Below are positions 22,473 to 42,420 of a stretch of 42,881 nucleotides of DNA, piece by piece. The DNA is from Chloroflexota bacterium (GTDB lineage Bacteria > Chloroflexota > Dormibacteria > Dormibacterales > Dormibacteraceae): the NCBI GenBank assembly GCA_005887685.1, contig VBHJ01000150.1, forward strand, positions 1 through 42,881, written 5' to 3'. The translations under genes and the position numbers were made by a program. The first letter of the stretch is position 1, and each line of letters begins with the position of its first letter. The notes beneath the pieces were generated by a model. That model saw nothing but the letters and a program-made list of their open reading frames with translations. It had not been told where the DNA came from and did not search any database.

Positions 22473-23329
22473 GTGTCGCAGTTCCTTCAGGCGGCCGCCT
22501 ATGGCGTAGTCCAGGGCGGCCTCCTGGGGCTCGTCGCCGTCGGCTTCTCGCTCGTCTGGGGAATCATGAACGTGGTCAACTTCAGCCACGGCGCGCTGGC
22601 GGTGACCGGCGCCTACATCGCGTGGATCCTGAACATACGGTTTGGGGTTGACCCGTTCCTCGCCATCCCGGTGGTCGCGGTCGCACTCTTCGCATTCGGC
22701 TACGTCCTGCAGCGCGGCCTGATCAACCTGGTCATCAACGCGCCGATCTTCCTGACGCTTCTGCTCACGTTCGGCTTGAACCTGGTCATCCTTAACGGAC
22801 GATCGACACATCGTATGCATCGCAGAGCTTCGCGATCGGCGCGGTGAACGTGCCCTACGGCCGGCTGGCGGCCTGCTTCCTGGCGCTCGGCATCACCGTC
22901 GCGCTGGCGCTCATGATGTCCCGCACGCGGCTGGGCCACGCGATCGGCGCCACGGGCATGGACCGCGGCGCGGCGCGGTTGATGGGCATTCGCGCACGTC
23001 ATATCTATGCGGTGACGTTCGGGATCGCCGCGGCTCTGGCCGGGGTCGCGGGGACGATGATCGCCACGGTCGGCTCCTTCAACCCGACGACGACTCCGGG
23101 TCAGCTCACGCTCGATGCCTTTGTGATCTCAGTCCTGGGCGGGCTCGGCAACATGTACGGCGCGCTGGTCGGTGGCCTGGTGCTGGGCATCGCGGAGTCG
23201 CTGGGCGGTCTGCTGCTGACCGGAACGTGGGTCAACGCGATTGCGATGGCGGTGCTGATCATCACCCTGGTCATCCGGCCGTCCGGACTGATCGGCAAGG
23301 CCCTGTACGGCGGCCGAGTCGAGGTGTGA
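22473..23329 (+). pseudogene. livH: LivH-type ABC permease, frame-disrupted near 22,795
   Basis: The first frame runs 22473-22847 and gives the N-terminal half (VGFSLVWGIMNVVNFSHGAL to LLTFGLNLVILNG). A second frame carries RTIDTSYASQSFAIGAVNVP and then YGRLAACFLALG to the C-terminus at 23329. In intact LivH proteins about ten residues lie between the GLNLVxxN and DYR/SYA segments. Here they are missing and the frame shifts, so a short out-of-frame deletion (length 1 mod 3) fits better than a single-base indel. By chance or not, a GTG at 22844 overlaps the first frame's TGA (GTGA), so two half-proteins could be made. The remaining sequence looks under normal constraint, so a sequence or assembly error is possible. 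Confidence 0.85.
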
Positions 23330-24402
23330 CACAGAAACCGTCTGCCGGCCCCGTGGCCGAGGTCCTGCAGGGGCGCTCTCGCAGCACGCAGGCGATGTTC
23401 GGCGACTGGATCCGGTCGCGCACCCCAGCCAACTCCTGGCCCGTGGTGGCGGGTTTTGCCGTGTTCGCCGCGATGCTTGGTTTGCAACAGCTGATCGTTC
23501 CCGGCACGCAGCGCCTGCTCACCTCCGTTTTCCTGTTCGTCGCCCTCGCGCAGGCGTGGAACATCATCGGCGGCTACACCGGCTACGCAAGCTTCGGCCA
23601 GGTCGCATTCTTCGGCCTCGGCGCGTACACGGTGGCCGTGCTCATGAACAACTACCACGTCTCGTTCTGGGTGGCGCTCCCGGTGGCGGTGGTGGTGGGG
23701 GTGCTGTTCGCCGTGGTGATAGGCGTCCCGCTCCTGCGCCTGCGTGGTCACTACTTCGCGATCGCGACCCTGGGTGCAGCTGAAGGCGCCCGCGAGGTGA
23801 TCAACAACATGACCTCGGTCACCGGCGGCGGGGGTGGCATCACCATCCCGACCTTCGGCTCTGAGGCCCCGACGCCGTATTTCGGCAAGCCTGGCTTCTA
23901 TCTGGCTTTTCTCGTGCTTGCGGCGGTGTCGGTCGCCGTCGCCGCGCTTATCGCCCGGAGCAGGTTTGGCTACGCAATGGTTGCCGTGCATGAGGACGAG
24001 GACGCAGCAGGAGCGGTCGGCATCAACACAACGGTGGTGAAGGTCATCGCATTCGCCGTGTCGGCGGCGATCGTCGCCTGCGCCGGCGCGTTCTATGCGT
24101 TCCAGCAGATCGAGTTCTATCCGACAGACGTGTTCGACGCCAGCTTCACGGTGTTGATGGTGATCATGGTCGTGATCGGTGGAAGCGGCTCGGTCGTCGG
24201 TCCGCTGGCGGGCGCCGTAGGGCTCGAACTCCTGTCGCAGTTCTTGCGAGTGAATCTCGGCAGCTTCAATCAACTGATCTTCGGGGCGATCATCGTGCTG
24301 GTCGTCGTGTTCTTTCCGCAGGGTGTCGTGATCTACCTTCGAGACGCCTGGCGGACGCGGCAGTTTTCCATCCTCGACAACGTGAGGCGGTACCGCCTGT
24401 GA
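23326..24402 (+). CDS. livM: LivM-type ABC transporter permease
   Basis: Encodes 358 aa from GTG 23326, overlapping the permease stop (GTGA). About nine to ten membrane helices. The family signature is clear: NIIGGYTGYASFGQVAFFGL, then RLRGHYFAIATLGAAEGARE, and the inner loop VAVHEDEDAAGAVGINTTVV that contacts the ATPases. The C-terminus reads GGSGSVVGPLAGAVGLELL. It forms the transmembrane channel with the LivH-type partner. It has an N-terminal extension of about 30 residues before the first helix. If LivH is truly broken, this permease would lack its partner. Confidence 0.92.
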   Translation: MTQKPSAGPVAEVLQGRSRSTQAMFGDWIRSRTPANSWPVVAGFAVFAAMLGLQQLIVPGTQRLLTSVFLFVALAQAWNIIGGYTGYASFGQVAFFGLGAYTVAVLMNNYHVSFWVALPVAVVVGVLFAVVIGVPLLRLRGHYFAIATLGAAEGAREVINNMTSVTGGGGGITIPTFGSEAPTPYFGKPGFYLAFLVLAAVSVAVAALIARSRFGYAMVAVHEDEDAAGAVGINTTVVKVIAFAVSAAIVACAGAFYAFQQIEFYPTDVFDASFTVLMVIMVVIGGSGSVVGPLAGAVGLELLSQFLRVNLGSFNQLIFGAIIVLVVVFFPQGVVIYLRDAWRTRQFSILDNVRRYRL

Positions 24403-25169
24403 TCGCTCCCGTCGAAGTACCATCGGCCGCCGTCCTCGAGGTTCGCCATCTTGCCAAGCGATTCGGCGGTCTGTGGGCGCTGCGCGATGTCAGCTTCTCG
24501 GTCTCAGAGGGCGAGATCCTCGGAGTCATCGGTCCCAACGGGGCGGGCAAGAGCACGCTGGTAAATCTCATCACAGGCCACTTGCGGCCCACCACCGGCC
24601 AGGTCTTGATCGGTGGCCGTGACGTCACCGGGCTGCGCCCGTGGGTAATCGCCCACGACCGCGTCGCGCGCACTTTCCAGATCGTCAAGCCCTTTCGCGG
24701 CCTGACGGTCCGCGAGAACGTCGCCATCGGCGCGATGCATGGCAATGAGCGCGACCGCAGCGTGCGCGATGCGCTGACCACGGCCGATGAGCTGCTCGAC
24801 CTGGTCGGAATCGCCAAGCACGCGAATGCGACCCCTACGCAGCTCAGCGTCGCCGACGCCCGCCGGCTCGAGCTGGCCAAGGCTCTGGCGACCCGCCCGC
24901 GGCTGTTGCTGATCGACGAGGTGATGGCGGGTCTGCGCCACCACGAGATCGAGTCCGCGGTCGGGCTCATCCACCGGCTGCGCGACAGCGGGATCACGAT
25001 CGTCGCGGTTGAGCACGTGATGAAGGCGATCGTCTCGGTCAGCGATCGCATCCTGGTCCTGCACCACGGCTCGATCCTGGCCCTGGGCTCGCCGAGTGAA
25101 GTCCTTGCCGATCCGCGGGTAATCGAGGCCTACCTGGGCCACCGCTATCTCGACCGGAGGTCGAGTTGA
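24399..25169 (+). CDS. livG: LivG-type ABC transporter ATPase
   Basis: Encodes 256 aa from GTG 24399 (GTGA overlap with livM). Walker A is GPNGAGKST, the Q-loop region is ARTFQIVKPF, and Walker B is LLLIDEVMAGL. The signature loop reads LSVADARRLELAKAL, where most LivG proteins have LSxGxQRxLEIA, so the C-loop Gly is Asp here. The family-specific EVMAGL after Walker B identifies LivG. It powers uptake together with LivF at the inner face of the membrane. Confidence 0.92.
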   Translation: MIAPVEVPSAAVLEVRHLAKRFGGLWALRDVSFSVSEGEILGVIGPNGAGKSTLVNLITGHLRPTTGQVLIGGRDVTGLRPWVIAHDRVARTFQIVKPFRGLTVRENVAIGAMHGNERDRSVRDALTTADELLDLVGIAKHANATPTQLSVADARRLELAKALATRPRLLLIDEVMAGLRHHEIESAVGLIHRLRDSGITIVAVEHVMKAIVSVSDRILVLHHGSILALGSPSEVLADPRVIEAYLGHRYLDRRSS

Positions 25170-25870
25170 GCCTGCTGGAGGTGCGCAACCTGAACGCGGG
25201 ATATGGCCGCATCCAGGTCCTGTGGGACGTGAGCATCGATGTGGAACCCAACCAGGTCGTCGCCCTGGTGGGAGCCAACGGCGCCGGCAAGACAACGCTG
25301 CTTCGCGCGCTCACCGGCATGATCCGGATCCGGTCCGGCAGCATCCACTTCCAGGGCCACGAGATGGCGGGCTCGGCCATCGAATCGATCGTCGACCTCG
25401 GCATCGCCCACGTCCCCGAGGGGAGGCGGCTCTTCATGGGTCTCACGGTCCGCGAGAACCTGCTCCTGGGCGGCTGGCGGAAGAACAACCGGGACCTGAC
25501 TCGAGTCATCGAGCTGTTCCCCGCGTTGGGGGAGCGCCTTAACCAGACCGCTTCGACGATGTCCGGCGGCGAGCAGCAGATGTGCGCCATCGGCCGGGGC
25601 TTGATGAGCATGCCGACGCTGCTTTTGATCGACGAGCTCTCGCTCGGCCTGGCGCCGAAGACCGTCGACGAGATCGTCGCCCGGCTGCCCCAGATCGCGG
25701 CATCCGGGACAGCGGTGCTTCTCGTCGAGCAAGACATCGATATCGCGCTGTCCGTCTCCGAGCGCGCCTACGTGGTCGAAACCGGCCGGATCACGAGGTC
25801 GGGACCGTCCCGGGAGCTGCTGACCGATCGAAGCATCCAGGAGGCGTACCTGGGCCTTTCACCCGGTTAA
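25166..25870 (+). CDS. livF: LivF-type ABC transporter ATPase
   Basis: Encodes 234 aa from TTG 25166, overlapping the livG stop (TTGA), with GGAGGT just upstream. Walker A GANGAGKTT, signature MSGGEQQMCAIGR, and Walker B LLLIDELSLGLAP are all canonical. The LSLGLAP tail after Walker B identifies LivF. It is the last gene of the transporter operon. The stop codon lies within a 12-bp palindrome. Confidence 0.94.
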   Translation: MSLLEVRNLNAGYGRIQVLWDVSIDVEPNQVVALVGANGAGKTTLLRALTGMIRIRSGSIHFQGHEMAGSAIESIVDLGIAHVPEGRRLFMGLTVRENLLLGGWRKNNRDLTRVIELFPALGERLNQTASTMSGGEQQMCAIGRGLMSMPTLLLIDELSLGLAPKTVDEIVARLPQIAASGTAVLLVEQDIDIALSVSERAYVVETGRITRSGPSRELLTDRSIQEAYLGLSPG

Positions 25871-25919
25871 CCGGATTCCGAACCGGGGTGCAAGATCCTG
25901 CGAGAAAGAGAAATCTTGC
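25863..25919. repeat. Palindrome cluster after livF
   Basis: CCGGTTAACCGG at 25863-25874 is a perfect 12-bp palindrome covering the livF stop codon, and another AACCGG follows at 25881-25886. Then GCAAGAT (25890-25896) pairs with ATCTTGC (25913-25919) across 16 bases. No T tract follows, so this may be an operator or RNA structure rather than a standard terminator. The rest of the gap to 26020 shows no clear promoter. Confidence 0.5.
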
Positions 25920-26020
25920 GCATGTTTGGGGCTGAAACTGGGTAAGTAGTCTGTAATCGCCCGCGGTTAGGGCGAACCCCGCATCAAGGGCAAGGATCGA
26001 GCCCTCGGAGGCAGGCACAG

Positions 26021-27976
26021 ATGAGTGTTCTGCTTGGTTTCCTCCTTCTTTTGTCGACGCTTGCCGCGCTCGCGCTGTACGTCATCGGAAGATCGATCGT
26101 GGTGATCGGCCCGGCCGAGATCGGCTTGGTCATCAAGCGGGTGTCGCGCCGGCACAACACGACCGACACGCCTATCGCCTTCGCCGGCGAAGCCGGCTAC
26201 CAGGCTGAGCTGCTCATGCCCGGCGTCCGCTTCAAGCTCTGGCCTACCTACACCGTCATCAGGTATCCCTGGGTCCAGGTCCCGGCGGGCGAGATCGGCG
26301 TCGTGATCTCGCAGATCGGCGATCCGCTTCCGACCGGCGCCAAGTCGGCCGCCTACCGTCCGGAGTTCGGCAACTTCACCCACCTCCGCGCCTTCGTCGA
26401 CGGCAAGGGCCAGAAAGGCGTCCAGCGCCCGGTGCTGCCGCCCGGCACGCTCGCGCCGATCCACCCGATCGCGTTCCTCGTGATCACGGCCTCCAAGGCT
26501 TACGGACTGCCGGTCGACCGGCAGATCGTCGCCCGCGGACCCCTGGCGCCGGCCTCGTTCGGCCTGCAGCCGGACCAGTTCCGGGTGACGGTCATCGCGC
26601 CCAACGGCAGCGAGGACACCGTCGGCATAGTCACCACTCTGGAGGGCGAACCGCTCGGCCCGGCCGACATCGCCTGCCGGATTGGTGGCTTCAGCGACAT
26701 AGAGGCGCTGGAGAAGCAGCCGGACATCACCGACTCGGAGCTCATCGAAGCTCTGCTCGGCAAGAAGAACGAGCTGCACAACAACTACCAGGACTTCCAG
26801 GCCTTCCTGGACAGGGGAGGGCGGATCGGGCTCCAGCACGACCCGCTGCTCTACGGGGCCTACCTGCTCAACCCGTTTCTCGTGCGGGTCGAGCTGGCTC
26901 CGATGCTGGTCGTCAACCAGGGCGAGGTGGCCGTGATCAAGGGCTACGTCGGTCTGCCCACGCTCGACACCTCGGGGCCCGAGTTCAAGTTCGGCTCGAT
27001 CGTGCAGCCGGGCCACCGCGGCATCTGGCGCGAGGCGCTGCGGACCGGCAAGTACCCGCTGAACCCGCGCATCTACGCGGCCGAGAAGGTGCCGACCTTC
27101 ATCCTCACCCTGAACTGGGCCGAGGCGAACTCGGTCGCGCATAACCTGGACGCTCAGCTCAGCCCGATCGAGGGCAAGAGCCGGGAGGGGTTCATCTTCA
27201 AGATCGACCTGCAGGTCCAGATCCACGTGCCTGACACGAGAGCCCCGAAGGTCATCTCGATGGTCGGCTCGATGCAAAACCTCGTCAACGAGGTGCTGCA
27301 GGCGGCGGTCGGGAACCACTTCCGGAACACGCTCCAGGGCCTGGAGGCGGTGCGTTTCATCGAGACGCGCGACCAGGTGCAGGCGGCGGCGCTGGAGGCG
27401 ATCTCGCGCTACCTGGCTGCCTACGAGGTCGAGACCCGCGGCGTCTACATCCAGGACGTGACGTTCCCCCAGGAGCTGGTCGCGGTGCTCACGCGGCGGG
27501 AGATCGCCAACCAGGAGAAGGCGACGTTCGAGGAGCAGAAGGACGCGCAGACGGTGCGCATAGACCTCGAGAAGGCACGCGGGACTGCCGACATGCAGGC
27601 GGAGCTGGCCAAGGCCCAGGTGTCGGTGGACATCAACCGTGCCAGGGCCAACGCCCGCAAGGCGGAGGCAGACGGCGAGGCGGCCTACGTCCGGGTCACC
27701 GGCGAGGCCGAAGGTTCGCGCCGTCGTGCGATCGGTCTGGGCGACGCGGCAGCCGTCGAGGCGCTTGGGCTGGCCAAGGCCAAGGGATACGACGCGCAGG
27801 TGCGCAGCCTGGGCTCGACACCGACGGCGGCGGTGGCCATCGCTAACGCGCTCTCCGAGGGCAAGCTCGACGTCATGCCGGAGGTGCTCGTCACAGGCGG
27901 CGGCGCGTTGGAAGGCCTTGCCGCCACGTTCATGCGCTCGTTGAACGGCAACAGCGAGGCCAAGGCCGAGAAGTAG
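26021..27976 (+). CDS. Flotillin-like SPFH/band-7 protein
   Basis: Encodes 651 aa. One N-terminal membrane helix (residues 4-26) is followed by a large SPFH region and then a long Ala/Glu/Lys-rich helical segment (about 485-595, including EIANQEKATFEEQKDAQTV) that should form a coiled coil. The C-terminus is Gly/Ala-rich (TGGGALEGLAATFMRSL). The SPFH core includes AAEKVPTFILTLNWAEANS and TRGVYIQDVTFPQELVAVLT. Flotillin-like proteins oligomerise on the inner membrane and organise lipid domains. The SPFH part is longer than in short stomatins. It is monocistronic, with a terminator after it. Confidence 0.85.
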   Translation: MSVLLGFLLLLSTLAALALYVIGRSIVVIGPAEIGLVIKRVSRRHNTTDTPIAFAGEAGYQAELLMPGVRFKLWPTYTVIRYPWVQVPAGEIGVVISQIGDPLPTGAKSAAYRPEFGNFTHLRAFVDGKGQKGVQRPVLPPGTLAPIHPIAFLVITASKAYGLPVDRQIVARGPLAPASFGLQPDQFRVTVIAPNGSEDTVGIVTTLEGEPLGPADIACRIGGFSDIEALEKQPDITDSELIEALLGKKNELHNNYQDFQAFLDRGGRIGLQHDPLLYGAYLLNPFLVRVELAPMLVVNQGEVAVIKGYVGLPTLDTSGPEFKFGSIVQPGHRGIWREALRTGKYPLNPRIYAAEKVPTFILTLNWAEANSVAHNLDAQLSPIEGKSREGFIFKIDLQVQIHVPDTRAPKVISMVGSMQNLVNEVLQAAVGNHFRNTLQGLEAVRFIETRDQVQAAALEAISRYLAAYEVETRGVYIQDVTFPQELVAVLTRREIANQEKATFEEQKDAQTVRIDLEKARGTADMQAELAKAQVSVDINRARANARKAEADGEAAYVRVTGEAEGSRRRAIGLGDAAAVEALGLAKAKGYDAQVRSLGSTPTAAVAIANALSEGKLDVMPEVLVTGGGALEGLAATFMRSLNGNSEAKAEK

Positions 27977-27986
27977 GCGGAGGACA

Positions 27987-28014
27987 GACCAGGGGGCCCA
28001 CGCCCCCTGGTCTT
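27987..28014 (+). terminator. Hairpin terminator after the SPFH gene
   Basis: A perfect 11-bp stem GACCAGGGGGC (27987-27997) and GCCCCCTGGTC (28002-28012), loop CCAC, followed by TT. The stem is strong and the T tract weak. Confidence 0.65.
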
Positions 28015-28021
28015 CCCCGAT

Positions 28022-28027
28022 TAAGCT
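28022..28027 (+). promoter_or_regulatory. Candidate leaderless -10 box (TAAGCT)
   Basis: TAAGCT (TAnnnT) ends 7 bases before the ATG at 28035. There is no Shine-Dalgarno and no obvious -35; the preceding hairpin occupies that space. Confidence 0.35.
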
Positions 28028-28034
28028 GCCCGCG

Positions 28035-28776
28035 ATGGATCTCGGACTGTCCGGAAAGCTCGTCATCGTCACCGGCGGCGCGTCGAACCTCGGTCGGGCG
28101 ATCACCCTGGGTTTCGCCAAGGAAGGCGCGCGCGTGGTGATCGCCGACGTGGACGACGAGCAGGCGAAGAAGGTGGAATCCGAGGCGCCCTCAGGAACGA
28201 TCGTCGCCCGCCACACCGACGTCACGAATTGGGAATCGGTCTCCTCGACGGTGGCGTTCGCAGAGGGCTCGATGGGCGGAGTCGACGTACTCGTCAACTG
28301 CGCAGGGTGGACGGTCGACCGCTTGTTCATGGAAAAGCCCCGCGCCGAGTGGGAGCGCGAGATCGCGATCGACACGTGGGGATTCATCAACACCGTGCGG
28401 GCGGTGCTCGATCCGATGATCAAGCGCGGATACGGACGCGTCGTGTCGATCGGATCTGACGCCGGCCGGATGGGCGAGTGGCGTGAGGCCGTCTACAGCG
28501 GCACCAAGGCAAGCGTGATCGCGATGTCGAAGTCGATCGCGCGGGAGGTTGGCAAGCACGGGATCACGCTGAACGTCGTGTGTCCAGGTCTGGTCGTCGG
28601 AGCAGTCCAAGATGTTCACACCCGAAGCGCTCCAGAAGGCCGCCAAGGCGTATCCGCTGCGTCGCCTCGGCACGCCGGACGACGTTGTGCCGGCGGTCCT
28701 CCTGCTGGCTTCTGACCGTGCGTCCTACATCACGGGCCAGACGCTGTCGATCAGCGGCGGCTACACCATGATCTGA
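28035..28776 (+). pseudogene. Short-chain dehydrogenase/reductase, frame-disrupted near 28,597
   Basis: The first frame gives a normal SDR up to the catalytic region: TGGASNLGRA nucleotide loop, NCAGWT, SIGSDAGR, YSGTKAS (Tyr and Lys), then NVVCPGLVV. After about 28,597 the family sequence continues in another frame as SEQSKMFTPEALQKAAKAYP, then LRRLGTPDDVVPAVLLLASD and a C-terminal SISGGYTMI ending at 28776. Relatives among alicyclic and aromatic-acid SDRs carry roughly 10-20 more residues after CPGL, so a short out-of-frame deletion (length 2 mod 3) is likely. Read literally, the first frame stops at 28715. The true end overlaps the convergent LLM gene by 16 bases. Confidence 0.85.
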
Positions 28777-30466: not shown

Positions 30467-31250
30467 TTTCGGCCAGGAATGAGTTGATCGAACCCGCCAG
30501 CTCGTGCGGCTTCTCGACCGGGATCGGATGGCCCGCGTCCGGGATGATCTCGAGCCGGCTGCCTTTGATGCCCGCGGCGATGATCTCGGCCGCCTTCGGC
30601 GGGCAGTGCCGGTCCTTCTCCGACGCGACGATCAGCGTCGGCACGGTGATGCGTCCAAGGTCTGGGTCCAGGGGCGCCTCGTTGAGCGCCGCCATGGCCG
30701 CACACGCGTTGCCATAACCGCGAGGATCGGCTGTCGACTCCCGTCTGATCATCAGAGCTTCCTCCAGCTCACCCGGTGATTCTGCGTACACGTCGGCCGT
30801 GTCGCGGTCGAGCGTCTCCCGAAGCTGCGGATCGCCTCGCTCGACCATGTCCACCCTCTGGCGATACCAGTCGGCTGCCACGCGCCCGACGCGACTCGAC
30901 GTCGCCACAAGCACCAATCCGCGGACGTCCATCGGGAAATCGATTGCGAATCGCATGGCGACTGTTCCACCTAGCGAGAATCCGGCGATATCCACCTGCT
31001 CGAGGTGGATGGCGTCCATGAACTCGAGCAGGTCGTTGCCCAGCTGACGCAGGTTGCCATGCGGTGTGCCGAGTGTCGTCTGGCCGTGGCCCCTGAGGTC
31101 ATACAGAAACACGCGCCGGTGGAGCATCAGGTCCGGAAGAGTGCGCCGCCATGCCCGGTGATCGTCCGCGAGGCCGTGGATGAGGACGAGGGGATCGCCG
31201 CGCCCAACCTCGGAATAGGCAACCTCCATGTCGTCGATGCGGACGCTCAT
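30459..31250 (-). CDS. Alpha/beta hydrolase
   Basis: Encodes 263 aa from ATG 31250, chosen for the ATGA overlap with the ligase stop. Triad: Ser in GFSLGGTVA, Asp in ASEKDRHCPP, His in PDAGHPIPVEKP. The HGLADDHRAW and YDLRGHGQT motifs are typical of C-C bond hydrolases and lactonases such as PcaD/MhpC-like enzymes. In an operon with a CoA ligase and crotonase, a ring-cleavage or lactone hydrolysis step is plausible but not shown. Confidence 0.87.
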   Translation of the reverse strand: MSVRIDDMEVAYSEVGRGDPLVLIHGLADDHRAWRRTLPDLMLHRRVFLYDLRGHGQTTLGTPHGNLRQLGNDLLEFMDAIHLEQVDIAGFSLGGTVAMRFAIDFPMDVRGLVLVATSSRVGRVAADWYRQRVDMVERGDPQLRETLDRDTADVYAESPGELEEALMIRRESTADPRGYGNACAAMAALNEAPLDPDLGRITVPTLIVASEKDRHCPPKAAEIIAAGIKGSRLEIIPDAGHPIPVEKPHELAGSINSFLAEIA

Positions 31251-34200
31251 CGCTGGGCCGCGAGCTCGCGGAGTGATTTCCGGTTCACCTTGCCCGGTCC
31301 CGAAAGTGGGAGCTCGTCGACCCGATGCACCACCTCCGGCCACTTGTAGCGTGCAAGGCCGCGCTCTTGAAGGAATCGATCAACGTCCTGTTTCGTCAGG
31401 TCGGTCCGCGCGACCACGAACGCGACCGGCACCTCGCCCAGCTCGGGATGCGGGCGCCCGACTACGCAAACATCGATCACTTCAGGATGCGCGCGCACCA
31501 TCGACTCGACCTCGTAAGGGTTGATGTTGGTTCCGCCCCTGATGATGACGTCCTTGACGCGGCCGGCGACGTGGAGGTATCCGTCGTCGTCGATGAAACC
31601 CAGGTCGCCCATGTGCGCCCATCCGTCATCTGACAGGGGTCCATAAGTCTCGCCCCAGTACCGGTCCTGGACAAGGTCGCCGCGCATGCAGATCTCTCCG
31701 TCGGCGATCTGCCACTCGGCTCGATCGTGGGGTCGCCCGACCGTGGTCCAGCGGAGAGGTTGGGGATCGGACGGGCTCGCGACCGCGAGCTGGCCTGCAT
31801 CCATCGAGCCGTAGAAGCTCGAGATTGGAACTAGGGTCGAGGATTCCCAACGCTCCGCGATCTCTGGGGGCAGCGGCGCCCCCGCGACCGCGACCGCTCG
31901 CAGAGACGCTGTCGGGTGAACCGGGTGGTTCAGCATCCTGATGACGTTGGTGGGCACACCGACCATCACGGTAGCCCGCGAAGCGGCCGCCACGTCGAGG
32001 CAGTGCTCCGGGGTCCAGTGCGGCTCTCGGAGCATGACCAGCGCGGCTCCGGCTCGCAGGCAGTAGAGGCACATGCCCCCGATGCCCTGGGTCAGCGGGG
32101 TCATCGGAAGGACGCGGTCCTTCTCGGTGATCTCCAGCCGCCGGGTGAAGCCCTCGAAAGTGACCTGTTTCAGGCGCGCCGAGAGTGAGGCTAGCTTGGG
32201 CATGCCCGTCGTGCCGGAGGTCATGGCGATCTCGACGATCCGATCCGGGTCGGGATCGGCGCTAGCCGGCTGGGCCGATACGTCGCGCAGCAGGTCTTCC
32301 AGGTTCGCGCCGGTGACGATCAGCGCAGGCCGCGTCTTCTCGCCCAGCCACCGCATCTCGTGCTCGCCGAGGCTCATCGGCAACGGCAGGATGACTGCTC
32401 CGAGGTCAGGGATCGCAAGCTCCAGCGCGACGTGCTGCCAGACGTTCGGCAGCTGCACGCCGACGACGTCGCCCGCCTTCACGCCCCGAGCCGCGAGCAC
32501 GCGTTGGAAACGGCGCACATGCTCGAGGAGCAGCCCGAACTCGATCTCGCCCTCGTCCCATACAGCGGTGGCATGGGGACGGCGCCGAGCGTTCCACTCG
32601 AGGTAGCTCATCGGGTCGTACGGCCGCGTCAACTGAGCGACCCGGTCCGGAGAAAGCGGGAGCGACACGTCGTTGAGCGACAGGGCATCAGCGATCGCAT
32701 TGGCGACAGCCGCCGTCGCGCCTATTGTTCCTCCCTCGCCGGCACCCTTGGTGCCCAGCTCGTGGACGGTCGACGGCGTGACGAGGTGCGTGATCTCGAC
32801 GGACGGCGCCTCGCCCGCGGTGGGGATGAGGTAATCGAGAAAGGTTCCGCTCAGCAGCTGTCCGTCTGGGCCATACGCGACCTCCTCCATGAGAGCAGCC
32901 CCGACGCCCTGCGTTACGCCGCCCACCACCTGGCCTTCGACGACGCTCGGGTTGATCAGCACCCCGCAATCCTCGGCCACGACGTAACGGAGGATCTTGG
33001 CCGCGCCGGTCTCGCGGTCCACCTCGACGAGGCACGCGTGGGTGGCGTATGGGTACGAGGCCTGGGGCGCGTCGTAGGTCACCGACACGTCGAGGACATG
33101 CTGACCGTCGTTGCGCTCCGCGAGCTGGGCCAGCGTGAGGTCCGCGGGCTCGCCATCGACCAGCACCGCGGCGCCGTCGATCGAGAGTCGCTCGGTGGGC
33201 TGGTCCAGCCGATACGACGCCGCATCGAGGATGGCCTCTCGCAGCAGCTTCGCGGCACGATAGGCGCTTGTCGCCGCGGTGACGGAACCGCGGCTCATGA
33301 ACGATCCCGTCCCGTGGCCGACCGTCGCGGTGTCGGTCTGTTCGACAACCACGCTTTCGGCCGCGACGCCGATGCCGGCGGCCGCAACCTGTGCGAACGT
33401 CGTATGCGATCCCTGTCCGATCGCGGGGCATGTCGTCTGGAGGTGCACCCGGCCGTCGGCGGCGAGCCACACGCGAGAGGTGTCGGTGCCAGGGATGTCG
33501 TCCATGCCGCGACCCTGAAACGTCGACGATCCGGCGCCCGTGTACTCGACGTAGGAGCCGATGCCGATTCCAAAGAGGCGGCCCTCGCTCCGCCCCCTTG
33601 CCTGCTCCTTGCGCGCGGCCCCGTAGTCGAACACCTGCAACGCAGAATCGAGCGCGGCGGCGTAGTCGCCCGAGTCATATGGATGCCGCGTGACACTTAG
33701 ATACGGCATCTGCGACGCCTGCACGAAGTTGACGCGACGAACGTCCGCGGGATCGAGGCCCAGCCGCGCCGCGATCAGGTCCATCAGGCGCTCGTGCGCG
33801 AGCACGGCCGTCACCATTCCAACGCCGCGATACGCGCCTTCAGGGCATTTGTTGGTCGCGACTGCATATGTGTCGTACTCATAGGCCCGGATGTCATATG
33901 GCCCCGTGATGAGTCCGGCTGTGCCGAGCGGGTCGAGCAACGGACCGAAGGGCCTGATCCCGTATGCCCCGATGTTGGAGAAGATCGTTGCGCGCAGGCC
34001 CAGCACGCGCCCGTCCTTGCGCACGGCGGCACTGAACTTGACGTTCTGGTCGCGCGCGTGGCTCGCGGCACGCATGTGCTCCGAGCGCGTCTCGACCCAC
34101 TTGACCGGAGCGTTCATCCGCATTGAGATCCACGCGAGGAGGATCTCCTCCGGGTAGACCTGTGCCTTGACCCCAAAGCCCCCTCCTACGTCCGTCGCGA

Positions 34201-34918
34201 CGACGCGAACGGCGGCCCGGTCCAGCTGCAGGCACTCCGAGATCGCATCCGCGACGAGGTGCGGAATCTGAGTCGACGTCCAGACGCCGACGCCTCCCTC
34301 GCCGTCGGGCGCGGCGATGACGCCACGACCCTCCAACGGCGCGGCGGACACGCGCGGGTGGGTCACCTCACCTTCGACGACTAGATCACAGCGCTCGAAC
34401 GCGTCCTCCAGGTTGCCGTAGGCGCGGTGGCCCAAAAAGTAGAGGTTCTCCGCCACGGCTTCATGCACGAGTGGAGCGTTCTCGGCCACCGCGTCTTCAA
34501 ATGTGACGATCGCCGGGATGGGGTCGATCTCGGCCTGGATGAGCTCCACCGCGTCGGCTGCCCGGTAGCGGGTGTCCGCGACGGCCGCGGCCATCATCTC
34601 GCCCACGAAGCGCACGCGATCGATCGCGAGGATCGGCCGTTCCGGGGAGACCGCACCGGGCGTCGAGAGATGGACGGCCAAAGGCAGGCATGTGCCGTCA
34701 AGGTCCGCGGCGGTGAAAACCGCGCGTACGCCCGGCCCGGCCTGCGCGCCTGAAACGTCGAGCCCGTGGAGGCGGCCGCTGGCGATCGGACTCCGCAGCA
34801 GGCCGACGTGCAGGCATCCGTCCGGCTCGAGGTCGTCGGCGAACTTGGCGGTTCCGCGCAGCAGGCGGCCATCCTCGAGCCGCCTCAGGCGCATGCCGAG
34901 TGGGCCGCCCTCAGCCAT
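31247..34918 (-). CDS. Molybdenum hydroxylase large subunit fused to acyl-CoA ligase
   Basis: One uninterrupted frame of 1223 aa from ATG 34918; further upstream starts give untranslated-looking sequence. Residues 1-769 are a xanthine dehydrogenase/aldehyde oxidase Mo-binding subunit: substrate-domain opening GMRLRRLEDGRLLRGTAKF, VGGGFGVKAQVYPEE, GAYRGVGMV, CPAIGQGSHTTF, and catalytic Glu728 in KGAGEGG. Residue 770 is Met (base 32611), where an AMP-forming acyl-CoA ligase starts (SYLEWNARRRPHATAVWDEG): P-loop MTSGTTGMPK, GDLGFIDDDGYLHVAGRVKD, and terminal Lys in GPGKVNRKS. There is no stop and no ribosome-binding site at the junction, and both halves look complete. No FAD or Fe-S subunit is adjacent. 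Either a true fusion or an in-frame loss of a short junction; see findings. Confidence 0.85.
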   Translation of the reverse strand: MAEGGPLGMRLRRLEDGRLLRGTAKFADDLEPDGCLHVGLLRSPIASGRLHGLDVSGAQAGPGVRAVFTAADLDGTCLPLAVHLSTPGAVSPERPILAIDRVRFVGEMMAAAVADTRYRAADAVELIQAEIDPIPAIVTFEDAVAENAPLVHEAVAENLYFLGHRAYGNLEDAFERCDLVVEGEVTHPRVSAAPLEGRGVIAAPDGEGGVGVWTSTQIPHLVADAISECLQLDRAAVRVVATDVGGGFGVKAQVYPEEILLAWISMRMNAPVKWVETRSEHMRAASHARDQNVKFSAAVRKDGRVLGLRATIFSNIGAYGIRPFGPLLDPLGTAGLITGPYDIRAYEYDTYAVATNKCPEGAYRGVGMVTAVLAHERLMDLIAARLGLDPADVRRVNFVQASQMPYLSVTRHPYDSGDYAAALDSALQVFDYGAARKEQARGRSEGRLFGIGIGSYVEYTGAGSSTFQGRGMDDIPGTDTSRVWLAADGRVHLQTTCPAIGQGSHTTFAQVAAAGIGVAAESVVVEQTDTATVGHGTGSFMSRGSVTAATSAYRAAKLLREAILDAASYRLDQPTERLSIDGAAVLVDGEPADLTLAQLAERNDGQHVLDVSVTYDAPQASYPYATHACLVEVDRETGAAKILRYVVAEDCGVLINPSVVEGQVVGGVTQGVGAALMEEVAYGPDGQLLSGTFLDYLIPTAGEAPSVEITHLVTPSTVHELGTKGAGEGGTIGATAAVANAIADALSLNDVSLPLSPDRVAQLTRPYDPMSYLEWNARRRPHATAVWDEGEIEFGLLLEHVRRFQRVLAARGVKAGDVVGVQLPNVWQHVALELAIPDLGAVILPLPMSLGEHEMRWLGEKTRPALIVTGANLEDLLRDVSAQPASADPDPDRIVEIAMTSGTTGMPKLASLSARLKQVTFEGFTRRLEITEKDRVLPMTPLTQGIGGMCLYCLRAGAALVMLREPHWTPEHCLDVAAASRATVMVGVPTNVIRMLNHPVHPTASLRAVAVAGAPLPPEIAERWESSTLVPISSFYGSMDAGQLAVASPSDPQPLRWTTVGRPHDRAEWQIADGEICMRGDLVQDRYWGETYGPLSDDGWAHMGDLGFIDDDGYLHVAGRVKDVIIRGGTNINPYEVESMVRAHPEVIDVCVVGRPHPELGEVPVAFVVARTDLTKQDVDRFLQERGLARYKWPEVVHRVDELPLSGPGKVNRKSLRELAAQR

Positions 34919-34926
34919 CGGGTGAA

Positions 34927-34932
34927 ACGTTA
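34927..34932 (-). promoter_or_regulatory. Candidate leaderless -10 box (TAACGT) for the minus operon
   Basis: On the minus strand TAACGT (TAnnnT) ends 8 bases before the ATG at 34918, with no Shine-Dalgarno. No clear -35 is seen. Confidence 0.3.
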
Positions 34933-34967
34933 AGCGCTCAGCGCCGGCTGCTCCCCCTGTGCCTGAG

Positions 34968-34983
34968 TACCGCAGTTGCGGTA
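34968..34983. promoter_or_regulatory. Perfect palindrome TACCGCA-GT-TGCGGTA, candidate operator
   Basis: Perfect 7-base arms with a 2-base centre, directly abutting the TTGACA at 34984-34989. It lies in the divergent gap between the minus-strand operon (start 34918) and the G1 peptidase (start 35055), well placed for a dimeric regulator acting on either side. Confidence 0.7.
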
Positions 34984-35014
34984 TTGACACCCGGTCCCAT
35001 GAGTTGGTACGGAT
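34984..35014 (+). promoter_or_regulatory. Candidate sigma-70-type promoter for the G1 peptidase
   Basis: TTGACA at 34984-34989 is a consensus -35; 18 bases later TACGGAT (35008-35014) is a weak -10. The start codon follows at 35055 with GGGGAGGT in between, giving a leader of about 35 bases. Confidence 0.5.
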
Positions 35015-35054
35015 CAAGGCAACAGAATCACCCATTGGCTGTGGGGAGGTGTGT

Positions 35055-35912
35055 ATGTCCGCGCGTTTGACGGTGTTTCGGGTCTTCCCTTTTCTTGTCC
35101 TGGCGGCTGTTGCCCTCGCGGCATTCGCGGGGTCGTCGCCTGGCATAAGACATGCGGTCGCCATGCATCACAACCGGCCGATCATCCACGTGGGAGCAAA
35201 CCAGTCCAACAACTGGTCTGGCTACAACCAGGGAGCGCTCGAGCAGGGCGGCAAGACCTTCACCTCGATTTCGGGCACGTGGACCGTGCCAACCGCCTCC
35301 GCTCGCAAGGCGAATGAGGCCGAATATTCGGCGACCTGGATCGGGATCGGCGGCGGATGCATCGACGCGGGATGCATGGCCACCGACAGCACGCTCATCC
35401 AGGATGGAACCGGGCAGGACGTCGATTCGACAGGACACGCGAGCTACTACGCCTGGTGGGAGATCATCCCCGCGCCCAGCGTGAACCTGAGCGGGTGCAG
35501 CCCGGACCCTAACTGCACGGTCGCCGCCGGCGACCAGGTCACCAGCACGATTGCGACATCCATCAACGGGCTCTGGACCATGTCGATGAGCGACAACACG
35601 CGTGGTTGGACCTGGTCGATGTCGATCGGGTACTCGTCGACTGAGGGATCCGCGGAGTGGATCGAGGAGACGCCGGTGGTGCTCGACAACTCGGGCAATG
35701 TCACCATCGGACCGATGCCGAACCTGACGGGCGCGCATTTCGACCTTGCCACGACCAACGGGGCTGCGGCGGGACTCATGGCTTCTGAAGAGATGCAGCT
35801 GGTCGACCTCAATCGCAACGTGATCGCGACGCCATCCGCCCCCGATCCGGATGCGGACGGATTCAACGTTTGCACCTACGCCGGGTCCTGCGGGGCTCCA
35901 GCCGGCAGCTGA
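35055..35912 (+). CDS. Secreted G1-family glutamic endopeptidase (eqolisin-like)
   Basis: Encodes 285 aa from ATG 35055, chosen for GGGGAGGT 5 bases upstream. It has an N-terminal signal peptide (hydrophobic residues 11-25) and a short propeptide-like stretch. The G1 core follows: NNWSGYNQGALEQ, FTSISGTWTVPTA, YSATWIGIGGG, LIQDGTGQ (candidate catalytic Gln116), SYYAWWEIIPAP, and GSAEWIEETP (candidate catalytic Glu201). Two cysteine pairs may form disulfides. Eqolisins are acid-active proteases first known from fungi, and bacterial members are found in acid-tolerant soil groups. It would be exported and act outside the cell, probably at low pH. Followed by a terminator hairpin. Confidence 0.9.
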   Translation: MSARLTVFRVFPFLVLAAVALAAFAGSSPGIRHAVAMHHNRPIIHVGANQSNNWSGYNQGALEQGGKTFTSISGTWTVPTASARKANEAEYSATWIGIGGGCIDAGCMATDSTLIQDGTGQDVDSTGHASYYAWWEIIPAPSVNLSGCSPDPNCTVAAGDQVTSTIATSINGLWTMSMSDNTRGWTWSMSIGYSSTEGSAEWIEETPVVLDNSGNVTIGPMPNLTGAHFDLATTNGAAAGLMASEEMQLVDLNRNVIATPSAPDPDADGFNVCTYAGSCGAPAGS

Positions 35913-35920
35913 CACATCAG

Positions 35921-35946: not shown

Positions 35947-35957
35947 TCCTATCCTTC

Positions 35958-37644: not shown

Positions 37645-38487
37645 ATGGAGTTTCTCCAGCCGTCGACGTGGACCGAAGCGCTCGGAATGAAGGCGGCGCA
37701 CCCGGAGGCGACGCCCATCGCGGGCGGCACCGACCTCATGGTCGAGATCAACCTCGACCACGGCCGCCCGGTCGCGATCATGGACCTGACGCGAATCGCC
37801 GAGCTCAACGAGTGGGGGACTGAGGACGGCCGGCTCCGCATCGGCGCCGGCGTGACGTATACGCGACTGATCGACGAGCTTGGCGACCGGCTGCCAGGCC
37901 TGGCCATGGCGTCCCGCACGGTCGGGTCGCCCCAGATCCGCAACCGCGGCACGGTAGGGGGCAACCTCGGGACCTCGTCGCCGGCCGGCGACGCGCTCCC
38001 ACCGCTGCTCGCGTCGGATGCGCTCGTCGAGCTGGCTTCCGTCTCCGGCACGCGGCGGTTGCCCGTGCGCGAGTTCTTCACCGGGCCCAAGCGAAACGCG
38101 ATGCGGAAAGACGAGCTGATCGCCGCATTCCTTGTCGGGCCGGCGGCCGGGGCGCAGCAATTCTCCAAGGTCGGAACACGCAACGCGATGGTCATCGCGG
38201 TCTGCTCGTTTGCCCTTGCCATCGATCCAGAGCGGCGCACGGTCGGGACCGGCATCGGCTCGGCGGGGCCGACGCCCCTTCGCGCGCCCGACGCGGAAAC
38301 CTTCATCCAGGCCGAGCTCGACTGGGACGGCCGGAAGCAGGTGAGCCCGGCCACCCTGGATCGATTCGGCGAGCTGGTCGCGGCCGCGGCGCGGCCGATC
38401 GACGACATCCGCGGCACGGCCGACTACCGCCGGCACGCGCTGGCAGTGCTGGCGCGCCGCTGCCTGGCGTGGGCGTGGGCCGCGTGA
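37645..38487 (+). CDS. xdhB: Xanthine dehydrogenase FAD-binding subunit
   Basis: Encodes 280 aa from ATG 37645, starting directly after the uricase stop. FAD motifs of the molybdopterin dehydrogenase family: ATPIAGGTDLMVEINLDHGR and NRGTVGGNLGTSSPAGDALP. A C-terminal CO-dehydrogenase flavoprotein domain follows. It passes electrons from the Fe-S centres to NAD or another acceptor. The stop overlaps the Fe-S subunit start (GTGA at 38484-38487). Confidence 0.93.
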   Translation: MEFLQPSTWTEALGMKAAHPEATPIAGGTDLMVEINLDHGRPVAIMDLTRIAELNEWGTEDGRLRIGAGVTYTRLIDELGDRLPGLAMASRTVGSPQIRNRGTVGGNLGTSSPAGDALPPLLASDALVELASVSGTRRLPVREFFTGPKRNAMRKDELIAAFLVGPAAGAQQFSKVGTRNAMVIAVCSFALAIDPERRTVGTGIGSAGPTPLRAPDAETFIQAELDWDGRKQVSPATLDRFGELVAAAARPIDDIRGTADYRRHALAVLARRCLAWAWAA

Positions 38488-38945
38488 GGATCACCTGCGT
38501 CGTCAACGGACAGTCACGAACGACCGATGACGTGTGGGCCGGCGAAAGCCTTCTCTACGTGCTTCGCGAACGTTTTGGGCTGTACGGCTCGAAGAACGCG
38601 TGCGAGCAGGGTGAATGCGGATCGTGCTCCGTCTACCTCGATGGGACGCTGGTTTGCGCGTGCCTGGTGCTCGGTGGACAGGCCCACGGTCGCGAGATAT
38701 TGACCGTCGAGGGTATCGCGCCCGAGAGCTCGCCGCATCGCGTGCAAAAGGCGTTCGTCGAAGCCGGGGCGGTGCAATGCGGTTTCTGCACGCCCGGTCT
38801 CATCGTGGCGACGCACGACCTCCTGCAGCGGGTGCGTCAGCCGACCGACGCGCAGATACGCGAAGCCCTCGCCGGCAACATCTGCCGCTGCACCGGCTAC
38901 GCCAAGATCATCGACGCGGTGCACATGGCAGCCGGCTCCCGATGA
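38484..38945 (+). CDS. xdhC: Xanthine dehydrogenase [2Fe-2S] subunit
   Basis: Encodes 153 aa from GTG 38484, chosen for the 4-base overlap; an in-frame GTG at 38469 would add 5 residues. Both clusters are visible: the plant-type site CEQGECGSC with a further Cys in LVCAC, and the second site CGFCTPG plus NICRCTGY. Length and order match the small subunit of three-subunit molybdenum hydroxylases. Overlaps the Mo subunit start (ATGA at 38942-38945). Confidence 0.94.
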   Translation: MRITCVVNGQSRTTDDVWAGESLLYVLRERFGLYGSKNACEQGECGSCSVYLDGTLVCACLVLGGQAHGREILTVEGIAPESSPHRVQKAFVEAGAVQCGFCTPGLIVATHDLLQRVRQPTDAQIREALAGNICRCTGYAKIIDAVHMAAGSR

Positions 38946-41133
38946 GGATCGGAGTGAGCGTCCGCAGGCCCGATGGCGCCGCCAAGGTCCGCGGCGACTT
39001 CGTTTACTCGTCCGACCTCCGCGTCGACGGCATGCTGTGGGGGGCAACGGTTCGCAGCCCGCATCCGTACGCGCGCATCGCGTCGATCCACACGGCCGAG
39101 GCTGGAGCAATGCCCGGCGTGCGCGCCGTGCTCACGCATGCAGACGTGCCGGGCCGGAACCTTTACGGCCTCGAGATCCAGGACCAGCCTGTGCTCGCCC
39201 ACGACGTTGTCCGCTACTGGGGCGAAGCCGTTGCGCTCATCGCCGCCGACCATCCCGAGCAGGCTCGGCGAGCCGCCGAGAAGGTGCGCGTCGACTACGA
39301 GGTGCTGCAGCCGATCACGGAAGCGGAGCGAGCGCTGTCGCCGGGCGCGCCGAAGCTGCACCCCGACGGCAATGTCACGCGCTGGGTGAAGATCCGCCAC
39401 GGCGAGCCGGCGCCACGCGCGGACGTCGTGGTGCGGGGCGAGTATGAGGTCGGCATGCAGGACCAGGCGCCCCTCGGGCCGGAGTCGGGCCTGGCGATTC
39501 CGGACGGCCAGGGTGGCGTCGACCTGCACATCGCGACCCAGTGGCTTCACGTAGACCAGAAGCAGCTCGCGGTCGTGCTGGGGCTTCCCGTCGAAAAAGT
39601 TCGGCTGACCATGGCGGGCATCGGAGGAGCATTCGGCGCTCGGGAGGACCTGTCCATGCAGGCCCACGCCTGCATGCTCGCGTTGAAGACCGGTCGGCCG
39701 GTGAAGATCTCGTACTCGCGGCCGGAGTCCTTTGTCGGTCACGTCCACCGGCATCCCGGGCGCCTCAGCTACGAGCACGGCGCGAATCGCGACGGAAGGC
39801 TCGTCTACGTGAAGGCGCGCATCCTCCTGGACGGAGGCGCCTACGCGTCGAGCTCGACCGCACCAACAACCCGCCTTGCGGCGCGATGCGAGGTTTCGGC
39901 TCGGTGCAGAACTGCTACGCCCACGAGGCGCAGATGGACAAGCTCGCCGTGGCCCTCGAGATTGACCCCGTCGAGCTGCGCATACGCAACGCCATGGAGA
40001 CAGGCAGCGAAATGATCACCGGGCAGGTGATCGACGGCCCAGTACCAGTCGCAGAGCTGCTGCAGCACGTGAAAGTAATGCCACTCCCCTCTCCCCACAG
40101 GGGAGACGGTCAGGGAGAGGGGAGTGAAAGCGTCGACCTCACTTTGCTCCCAGGCGGAGTTTCCAACACAACTCACGGGGAAGGCGTGAAGCGCGGCGTG
40201 GGCTATGCCGTCGGCTTCAAGAACATCGGTTACTCCGAAGGCTTCGACGACTACTCGACGGCGCGCGTCCGCCTCTTCGTGGAGGGTGGCAAGCCGCGCG
40301 CCGAGGTCCACACCGCGGCGGCAGAGGTCGGGCAGGGAATCGTGCTCGTCCAGGCGCAGATCGCCGGCAGCGTGCTCGGCGTCGGCGACGTGGTGGTGCT
40401 CAACGCCGACACCGCCGTCGGATCGGCCGGCTCGTCGTCCGCCTCGCGGCAGACTTACATAACCGGCGGTGCGGTCAAGGCGGCGGCCGAGGCAGTGTGC
40501 GTGCGCGTCCTCGAGATGGCGGAATCGGAGCTGCACCCCGCCCGCGAGCTGCGCATTGAAAACGACACCGTGACCGACGCCGGTGGCAAGGAGATCATCT
40601 CGCTCGCCACTCTGCTGGGCGACGCTGTCATCGAGGAGACACGCGAGTTCCGGCCTCGGCGCACACAGCACCTCGATTCCGAAACGGGCCAGTCCAACGC
40701 CCACATGCAGTTCGCTTTCGCCGCCCATCGCGCCGTCGTGGACGTCGACACCGAGCTCGGCCTCGTCAAGGTGGTCGAGCTGGCGACCGCTCAGGAGGTG
40801 GGCAAGGCGATCAACCCGCTCGCCGTGCAGGGACAGCTCGAGGGCGGAGCGGCACAGGGTCTGGGCCTGGCGGTGATGGAGGAGATCCAGGTCAAGGACG
40901 GCGTCATCCGCAACGCGTCGTTCACGGACTACCTGCTCCCGACGATCCTCGACATGCCGCCCATGCGGATGGACATCCTCGAGCTGGGCGACCCGAACTC
41001 GCCTTACGGCTTGAAGGGGGTGGGGGAGCCGCCGACGATCTCCTCCGGGCCCGCGATCGTGGCCGCCATCCGCGCCGCGACCGGACGCGACATCAACCGC
41101 GTGCCCGTCCGACCGCACGACATCACCCTTTGA
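38942..41133 (+). pseudogene. xdhA: Xanthine dehydrogenase molybdenum-binding subunit, frame-disrupted near 39,855
   Basis: The first frame is a normal start (MRIGVSVRRPDGAAKVRGDF) through GGAFGAREDLSMQAHACM to ILLDGGAYASSSTA. The family sequence then resumes in another frame at RTNNPPCGAMRGFGSVQNCY and runs to 41133, including GSSSASRQTYITGGAVKAA and catalytic Glu in LKGVGEPPTI. In relatives about 25 residues lie between AYASSSTA and RTNNPPCG. They are absent here, implying an out-of-frame deletion (1 mod 3) of roughly 70-80 bases. A 45-bp palindrome sits in frame at 40082-40126 in a variable linker. Downstream coupling (TTGA with the amidohydrolase) is intact. As read, the enzyme would be non-functional. 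Confidence 0.88.
40082..40126. repeat. REP-like palindromic element inside xdhA
   Basis: Perfect 14-bp arms CACTCCCCTCTCCC (40082-40095) and GGGAGAGGGGAGTG (40113-40126). The centre also allows an alternative hairpin CTCCCC-ACA-GGGGAG (40091-40105). This C/T-G/A-rich palindrome looks like a dispersed REP element rather than coding sequence. It is read in frame as PLPSPHRGDGQGEGSE in a linker that varies in the family. Confidence 0.8.
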
Positions 41134-42420
41134 GCTTTCTCCTGAAGGCCGGACTGGTCTACACCGGCACACGCGAGATCGAGAACGGCTGGGTGCACGT
41201 CCGCCACGGCGTCATCATCGAGGTCGGATCCGGTCCGGCTCCAGAGGCGGGCGAGATCGTCGACGAGCCCAACTGCGTTGCCACGCCGGGCCTCGTCAAC
41301 GCGCACGACCACATGTACCAGTGGGCAACGCGGGGCTACGTGGCCGACGGCACGCTTTTCGAGTGGCTGCGCGCGCTGTACCCGGTTTGGGCGCGGATCG
41401 ATGCCGACAGCGTGCGCGTGGCCGCACGTGCAGCGATGGCGCGGCTGCTGCTCTGCGGCTGCACCCTCTCGACCGACCATCACTACGTCTTTCCACACGG
41501 CCGGCCGGGCCTGTTCGAGGCGCTCGTCGAGTCGGCGCGAGAGCTGGGTCTCCGATTCCATCCCTGTCGCGGCTCGATGTCGCTGGGCGACTCCAGAGGC
41601 GGGCTGCCGCCGGACAGCGTGGATGATCGCGCGCCATCACGATCCGCAGCCGGGTTCGATGTGCCGCGTGGTGGTCGCGCCGTGCTCGCCGTTCTCCGTC
41701 TCGCCTGAGCTCATGCGCGACTCGGCCGCGCTGGCCCGCCGCCATGGCGTCCGGCTTCACACTCACGTCGCCGAGACTCTTGACGAGGAGCGTTTCTGCC
41801 TCGAAAAGTTCGGTCGCCGGCCGCTGGAGCTCATGGAGGACCTCGGCTGGACGGGCGATGACGTCTGGTACGCGCACGGAATCCACCTCAACGACGCCGA
41901 GATCGACCGCGTCGCCGAGGTCCGGACCGGGATCGCGCACTGCCCGTCCAGCAACATGCGACTGGGAGCGGGCGCGTGCAGGGTCGAGGACCTTCTCAGG
42001 GCTGGGGCGCGCGTTGGTCTTGGGGTCGACGGCGCCGCGAGCAACGAGGACGCCAACATCGCGACCGAGGCGCACCAGGCGCTCCTGCTGGCTCGGGTGC
42101 GGGCCACCTCGCCAACGGCGCTGGACGCGCGCGCTGCATGGAGGCTCGCGACTCAGGGCGGGGCGGAATGCCTCGGCCGCGACGACTGCGGGACGCTCGA
42201 GGTCGGCAAGTGCGCGGACATCGCATGCTTCCGCGTCGACGATCTCGCCCATGCAGGCATCAAGGATCTCGTCGCGGCGCTCGCCCTTGCGCCGCCGGCG
42301 CGGGCTCAGACCGTGATCGTCAATGGACGCGCTGTCGTTCGCGACGGCCGGCTGCTGACCGCCGACGAGGACGAGATCGCCCGCGAGATCGCCGCTACGA
42401 GCGCACGCCTGGCCGGATGA
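41130..42420 (+). pseudogene. 8-oxoguanine deaminase/AtzB-like amidohydrolase, frame-disrupted near 41,625
   Basis: TTG start 41130 overlaps the xdhA stop (TTGA). The first frame gives NAHDHMYQWATRGY (metal His-x-His), ALYPVWARIDADSV, and CRGSMSLGDSRGGLPPDSV. The family sequence continues in a second frame as RHHDPQPGSMCRVVVAPCSP, HTHVAET (metal His), YAHGIHLND, and GVDGAASNED (metal Asp), ending at 42420. Relatives have about 15 residues (an ILADSERL-type helix) between the two parts, so a short out-of-frame deletion (2 mod 3) is likely. The product class deaminates 8-oxoguanine to urate or hydrolyses related rings, which fits the purine operon. The 3' end overlaps the convergent allantoinase by 26 bases. 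Confidence 0.85.

What the first reader, a model, noticed from the sequence alone, without database searches (positions are those of the whole stretch)
22473..42420. Four genes carry the same kind of lesion: a short internal out-of-frame loss
livH (about 22,795), the SDR (about 28,597), xdhA (about 39,855) and the amidohydrolase (about 41,625) each keep good family sequence on both sides. In each, roughly 10-28 residues known from relatives are absent and the frame changes. All four flanks still show overlapping, coupled starts and conserved motifs, so long-term decay is unlikely. Either the assembly dropped short segments (gap closure or repeat collapse), or a recent process removes short tracts. 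Until settled, all four pseudogene calls are provisional.
Basis: partly seen in the sequence, partly recalled or inferred. Interest (0 to 1): 0.7.

Follow-up and report, generated by a model that had tools for sequence, protein, structure and literature searches.

The report
Genes broken by assembly gaps
Four genes in this soil-bacterium contig really do lack 31, 41, 79 and 38 letters that their aligned relatives have, but the same bare losses hit even an essential gene elsewhere in the genome, so they are most likely places where assembly software joined two pieces and left out the short stretch between them, not dead genes.

Summary
Against same-genus genomes the window lacks 31 nt in livH (junction 22795/22796), 41 nt in the SDR (28590/28591), 79 nt in xdhA (39860/39861) and 38 nt in the amidohydrolase (41621/41622). 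Every aligned relative that spans a site has the bases. The joins are nearly blunt (3, 1, 1, 1 nt) and unremarkable in folding, GC and shared words.

The losses are not local. In about 97 kb of other coding DNA of the same genome I found three more frame-breaking losses, of 16, 46 and 67 nt. The 16-nt loss is in the only infB (IF-2) found; genus member G001 has a loss of about 118 nt in its infB. The reciprocal count in G014 is 0 of 107 genes.

N-runs in this assembly go down to 3 N. Of five calibrated in G000, four are written 11-50 nt too short. A true gap of tens of nt could thus be estimated at zero and joined bare.

Best explanation: scaffold or local-assembly errors of a short-read soil MAG. 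The pseudogene calls should be withdrawn pending read mapping.

The parts
22473..23329 (+). livH-like ABC permease gene in two frames (22473-22847 and 22844-23329); 31 nt missing at 22795/22796
   Evidence: PF02653 in both pieces; 31-nt gap against G007, G008, G012, G013, G014; microhomology CGG (3 nt)
28035..28760 (+). SDR (adh_short) gene; 41 nt missing at 28590/28591
   Evidence: 9 of 9 spanning relatives carry the 41 nt; microhomology 1 nt
38615..41133 (+). xdhA-like molybdopterin-binding subunit in two frames (38615-40015, 39541-41133); 79 nt missing at 39860/39861
   Evidence: 11 of 11 spanning relatives carry the segment; microhomology 1 nt
41130..42420 (+). amidohydrolase gene in two frames (41130-41708, 41278-42420); 38 nt missing at 41621/41622
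   Evidence: 11 of 11 spanning relatives carry the segment; microhomology 1 nt

Best explanation
The four lesions are local assembly errors of a short-read soil metagenome bin, not mutations. Where read coverage or the graph failed for a few tens of bases, two contig pieces were placed next to each other by read pairs (or local reassembly), the gap was estimated at about zero or below, and the pieces were joined with no Ns. The 31-79 nt in between are missing from the file, not from the organism. Shown here: the losses, their blunt joins, their presence elsewhere in the genome including an essential gene, and the short gap estimates of N-containing joins in the same assembly. Inferred: that the assembler joins bare when its estimate is zero or less, and that the window's genome was made with the same pipeline as its relatives.
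For: (a) Elsewhere in the genome. Against G014 references (112 genes, 119 kb), frame-breaking losses lie also in infB (16 nt, C80:3573), a membrane-protein gene (46 nt, C43:19843) and a glycosyltransferase gene (67 nt, C43:25452). The reciprocal search in G014 (107 genes, 115 kb) gives 0. (b) Essential gene. IF-2 is found once per genome, in 17 of 17 genus genomes. G000's only copy changes frame at about residue 594, and G001's copy lacks about 118 nt. (c) The same kind of loss in xdhA of another MAG, L086: 118 nt at a conserved place. L085, the same contig as G016's, has a frame-breaking loss of about 94-103 nt in a linker whose length varies among relatives, so it counts for less. (d) Gap-size calibration against relatives. 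G000 runs of 3, 15, 4, 3 and 27 N have true sizes of -2, 55, 17, 14 and 77 nt; G006's 30 N in xdhA is 63 nt in 6 of 6 comparisons; G009's 132 N is 251 nt in 4 of 6 comparisons (381 and 981 in the others). (e) Microhomology of 3, 1, 1, 1 nt (by eye), no hairpin or GC enrichment at 8 sites, no shared-word enrichment at 4 sites. Chen et al. [quoted passage not shown]
Against: No reads were available, so no junction was tested directly. The window itself could not be tied to a named record; that it is an Angelo bin is inferred from its relatives. The window holds four losses in about 22 kb of coding DNA compared, against three in about 97 kb elsewhere (Poisson P about 0.005 at the outside rate), though the window was picked because of them. 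The Angelo authors say that scaffolding errors in their bins were corrected, so these would have escaped correction. Another contig of the same assembly (C148, 82% identical) ends within 2 nt of the SDR junction, which randomly placed gaps do not explain. One of five calibrated N-runs in G000 is too long, not too short (3 N, true -2), and the 67- and 79-nt losses need a larger error than the five measured. Three other long essential genes searched show no internal loss in G000: rpoC and valS are intact, and dnaE is split between two contigs with overlapping ends. The nucleotide list also holds gaps of 10-38 nt on the G014 side; the protein scan ranks none as a frame-breaking loss, but I did not read each one.
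Confidence: 0.87

Rival explanations
1. Real recent deletions: the organism has lost short tracts by blunt end-joining (Ku/LigD-like repair or polymerase error), creating pseudogenes across the genome.
For: Blunt joins with 1-3 nt of microhomology would suit end joining; the losses are clean and the flanks undecayed; four lie in one 20-kb catabolic stretch that might be dispensable. Ku/LigD genes were not searched for.
Against: The same kind of loss breaks the only infB found in G000, and G001 has its own loss in infB. G014, a relative with large contigs, shows 0 such losses in 107 genes. Known joins with Ns in the same assembly already have the right size range and a mostly short bias.
Confidence: 0.06
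2. Repeat collapse or slipped pairing: direct repeats or hairpins at the edges caused either a graph collapse or a polymerase deletion.
For: A 12-nt palindrome lies just before the xdhA junction, and some relatives could form a short hairpin at the SDR site (seen by eye).
Against: Direct repeats at the four edges are only 1-3 nt. At 8 sites the folding energy of G014's DNA is unremarkable: 18-88% of neighbouring places are as stable.
Confidence: 0.04
3. Strain mixture: part of the population carries the deletions, and the assembler chose that path.
For: Contig C148 shows that DNA of a related organism (82% identical) was put in the same bin, and soil populations are mixed.
Against: Seven independent frame-breaking variants, one in infB, would each have to be the chosen path; no second close copy of any of the four sites other than C148 was listed for G000.
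Confidence: 0.03

Closest known systems
Local assembly errors in IDBA-UD metagenome scaffolds (Chen et al. 2020, PMC7111523, passages read)
   Same: [quoted passage not shown] Ns inserted although the flanks overlap (matches the 3-N run in pyrG here, true gap -2); broken protein-coding sequences passed on to databases.
   Different: Lack of read support could not be tested here. The passages read do not describe bare joins that drop 16-79 nt or give a rate; both are measured here by comparison with relatives.
Frameshifted genes of decaying genomes (true pseudogenes; recalled)
   Same: Frame disruption with family sequence on both sides.
   Different: Here the counted losses are clean internal gaps of 16-79 nt with undecayed flanks, and one is in infB; decay would spare essential genes and leave mixed lesions.

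Membership tests
Assembly gap-closure / local assembly error | sequence present in relatives is absent at a clean junction | tested here: met
Assembly gap-closure / local assembly error | independent of gene function: essential genes hit as well | tested here: met
   infB broken in G000 and in G001; but rpoC and valS intact in G000
Assembly gap-closure / local assembly error | loss sizes within the size range and error of the assembly's own N-gaps | tested here: met
   true sizes of five of nine N-gaps are -2 to 77 nt in G000, 4 of 5 underestimated by 11-50 nt; the 79-nt loss lies just above that range
Assembly gap-closure / local assembly error | no read matches the junction perfectly | not testable with these tools
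True pseudogenes by deletion | restricted to dispensable genes | tested here: not met
   infB
True pseudogenes by deletion | junction confirmed by reads | not testable with these tools
   no raw reads
Repeat-mediated deletion or repeat collapse | direct repeats of several nt or more at the junction | tested here: not met
   3, 1, 1, 1 nt, by eye

The most novel reading that the evidence does not exclude
A lineage of soil Chloroflexota/Dormibacterota is undergoing a genome-wide burst of short blunt deletions of 16-79 nt by mutagenic end joining, dense enough to break one gene in every few tens of kilobases, with IF-2 function rescued by an unassembled copy or by translational frameshifting.
Probability: 0.03. 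Interest if true: 0.65.

Novelty: not a real feature. Interest (0 to 1): 0.15.

Why it matters
Taken at face value, the window would be read as a bacterium that has lost a branched-chain amino acid permease, an SDR, a xanthine-dehydrogenase-like enzyme and an amidohydrolase. If the losses are joining errors, gene counts and pseudogene calls in such soil genomes are off: here 7 frame-breaking losses in about 119 kb of coding sequence compared, one per 17 kb. Comparison with relatives, plus essential genes as internal controls, is a cheap way to detect this where reads are not at hand.

Tried and rejected
Hairpin or GC cause: DNA folding of the orthologous sites in G014 at 8 losses is unremarkable. 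Shared-word cause (contig breaks where co-occurring species share long exact words): the longest identity runs near the four junctions are ordinary; 17-49% of places reach as much. Link to the dispersed CCCCTCTCCCC...GGGGAGAGGG repeat that lies in xdhA at 40085-40130: it is about 220 nt from the xdhA junction, and no other hit in the window is listed. The 182-nt difference at C80:18026 lies between genes, up to the start of a gene that looks like uracil-DNA glycosylase (name recalled from its sequence), and was not counted; the 48-nt loss in a GNAT gene (C1:10123) is in frame and was not counted; a 22-nt row at C43:28382 proved to lie outside genes. The 33-nt difference at C43:24271 is between genes. 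One- to eight-base frame differences in the lists were not counted for either genome. Rows in the relatives that I regard as doubtful: G012 116 nt in a short ORF and G006 11 nt, and L085/G016 because the linker varies. The script missed the SDR loss, which rests; it gave 94 instead of 67 nt for the glycosyltransferase, where the HSPs overlap (67 nt). One region of G014:C1 tested for synteny had no counterpart. A literature search for a description of such bare joins found nothing with its terms (0 papers with at least 5 of 6 terms).

Full report
What was checked. The window is the whole of contig C56 (42,881 bp) of a 3.05-Mb, 264-contig genome with stated completeness 94%. Sixteen same-genus genomes are held (G001-G016). 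The Angelo grassland-soil paper names such a sample. Its methods were 250-bp paired reads cut to 200, IDBA-UD k 30-200, and MEGAHIT plus the IDBA-UD scaffolder for one sample (passages of PMC6784897 read). The window's own record was not found by name.

The four lesions are real in the sequence. Nucleotide alignment shows one clean internal gap in each gene: livH 31 nt, SDR 41 nt, xdhA 79 nt, amidohydrolase 38 nt. Every aligned relative that spans a site has the bases: 5 of 5, 9 of 9, 11 of 11 and 11 of 11. A list of gaps of 8 nt or more inside aligned blocks shows no further loss of this size seen by several close relatives at a conserved place. However, 11.1 kb of the window had no aligned relative and gaps between blocks were not listed. 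An 8-nt difference at about 32,630 is given under things noticed.

Junctions. The missing segment and its right flank share only 3, 1, 1 and 1 nt (by eye), close to what blunt joining gives by chance. At eight losses (four here, four elsewhere in the genome, one of them in frame) the orthologous DNA of G014 is neither unusually foldable nor GC-rich. At the four window sites it is not unusually conserved in exact words.

The losses are not confined to the window. I took about 0.88 Mb of other stretches of the same genome and compared them with G014 contig C1 (376 kb, 393 kb) and parts of C106 and C32. Outside the window, three further frame-breaking losses stand after reading the translations: 16 nt in infB, 46 nt in a membrane-protein gene and 67 nt in a glycosyltransferase gene. 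A 48-nt in-frame loss was found in a GNAT gene. With the same settings the script finds 7 rows in G000 (112 genes, 119 kb): six true losses, three of them in the window, and one false row outside genes. It finds 0 in G014 (107 genes, 115 kb). It misses the SDR. The verified total is 7 frame-breaking losses in G000 against 0 found in G014. The nucleotide list has gaps of 10-38 nt on the G014 side too, which I did not read one by one.

IF-2 is the key control. A search of the 17 genomes of the genus with the G014 IF-2 finds one locus in each. It is intact in 13, broken by a loss in G000 (frame change at about residue 594) and in G001 (about 118 nt), only partly present in G013, and in G007 full length with one in-frame TAG. 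A population should not be able to lose the end of its only IF-2 (recalled knowledge), so at least this loss, of the same kind, is most easily read as an artefact. Against this, rpoC and valS of G000 are intact, and dnaE is split between two contigs with overlapping ends.

How the artefact arises. In 0.88 Mb of the same assembly outside the window there are nine N-runs: 3, 143, 15, 4, 56, 3, 88, 27 and 101 N, so the software wrote its own estimate and went down to 3. I calibrated five of the nine against relatives. Estimated 3, 15, 4, 3, 27 correspond to true -2, 55, 17, 14, 77 nt; the 15-N run was measured against two Streptomyces records only. In relatives, a 30-N run in xdhA of G006 is truly 63 nt, and a 132-N run in G009 is 251 nt in 4 of 6 comparisons (381 and 981 in the others). 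In G000, estimates are therefore short by 11-50 nt in 4 of 5 cases. A true gap of 16-50 nt would readily be estimated at zero or less and closed without Ns, which would give exactly the bare losses seen; the 67- and 79-nt losses need a somewhat larger error than the five measured. That last step of the program is inferred; I did not see its code. Chen et al. [quoted passage not shown]

Other MAGs show it too. Over about 207 kb of coding sequence in 34 other target loci (the script finds 3 of the window's 4 losses), net losses with frame change were seen in xdhA of L086 (118 nt, at a conserved place) and of L085, the same contig as G016's (about 94-103 nt, in a linker of variable length), plus two doubtful rows. 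G005, probably assembled with MEGAHIT by its contig name (recalled naming), shows none in 13 kb. This is too little to compare assemblers.

What remains open. The window has more losses than the rest of the genome at the measured rate (P about 0.005; the window was selected for having them). Contig C148 of the same bin, 82% identical, ends within 2 nt of the SDR junction, which chance placement does not explain well. Neither speaks for a biological process in particular. Reads would settle all of it.

Verdict. The four genes should be treated as probably intact in the organism.

Noticed in passing
window 40085-40130: A 38-46 nt dispersed inverted repeat (CCCCTCTCCCCACAGGGGAGAGGGTCAGGGAGAGGGG-like) lies inside the xdhA coding frame, in a linker whose length varies among relatives; 22 hits in 0.92 Mb of this genome and many more in the genus.
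   Followed up: partly
window 31247-35164 (about 32630): A 1305-aa minus-strand ORF fuses two genes that are separate in G014. The window is 8 nt shorter than relatives in three gap rows and 14 nt in a fourth at the boundary, and the old stop is out of frame. It may be a fifth, very short loss or a natural fusion; the boundary varies among relatives.
   Followed up: partly
window 28590; L069 (G000:C148) position 1: A second contig of the same bin, 82% identical to window 25304-28592, ends within 2 nt of the SDR junction; unexplained coincidence, and a sign of foreign DNA in the bin.
   Followed up: partly
window 41777-41847: Contigs of G007, G008 and G013 all end within about 70 nt of each other in the amidohydrolase gene, and L084 has an N-run at about 41476-41611.
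   Followed up: no
L085, about 480-700 (same contig as G016:C123): The xdhA gene of this MAG changes frame in the variable linker that in the window holds the dispersed repeat.
   Followed up: partly
G000:C1 about 10050 (L156): A GNAT gene with a 48-nt in-frame loss also has an in-frame stop where G014 has Tyr.
   Followed up: no
L238 (G007:C99) IF-2 codon 574 of the G014 numbering: The IF-2 gene of G007 has an in-frame TAG where G014 has GAG.
   Followed up: no
window 28403: G007 lacks 33 nt (a multiple of three) in its SDR gene that the window has.
   Followed up: no
window 9194-9872: About 680 nt of the window are absent from G008, whose flanks are adjacent.
   Followed up: no
window 10901: G008 has 14 nt that the window lacks, just at an ORF start; only this relative was aligned there.
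   Followed up: no
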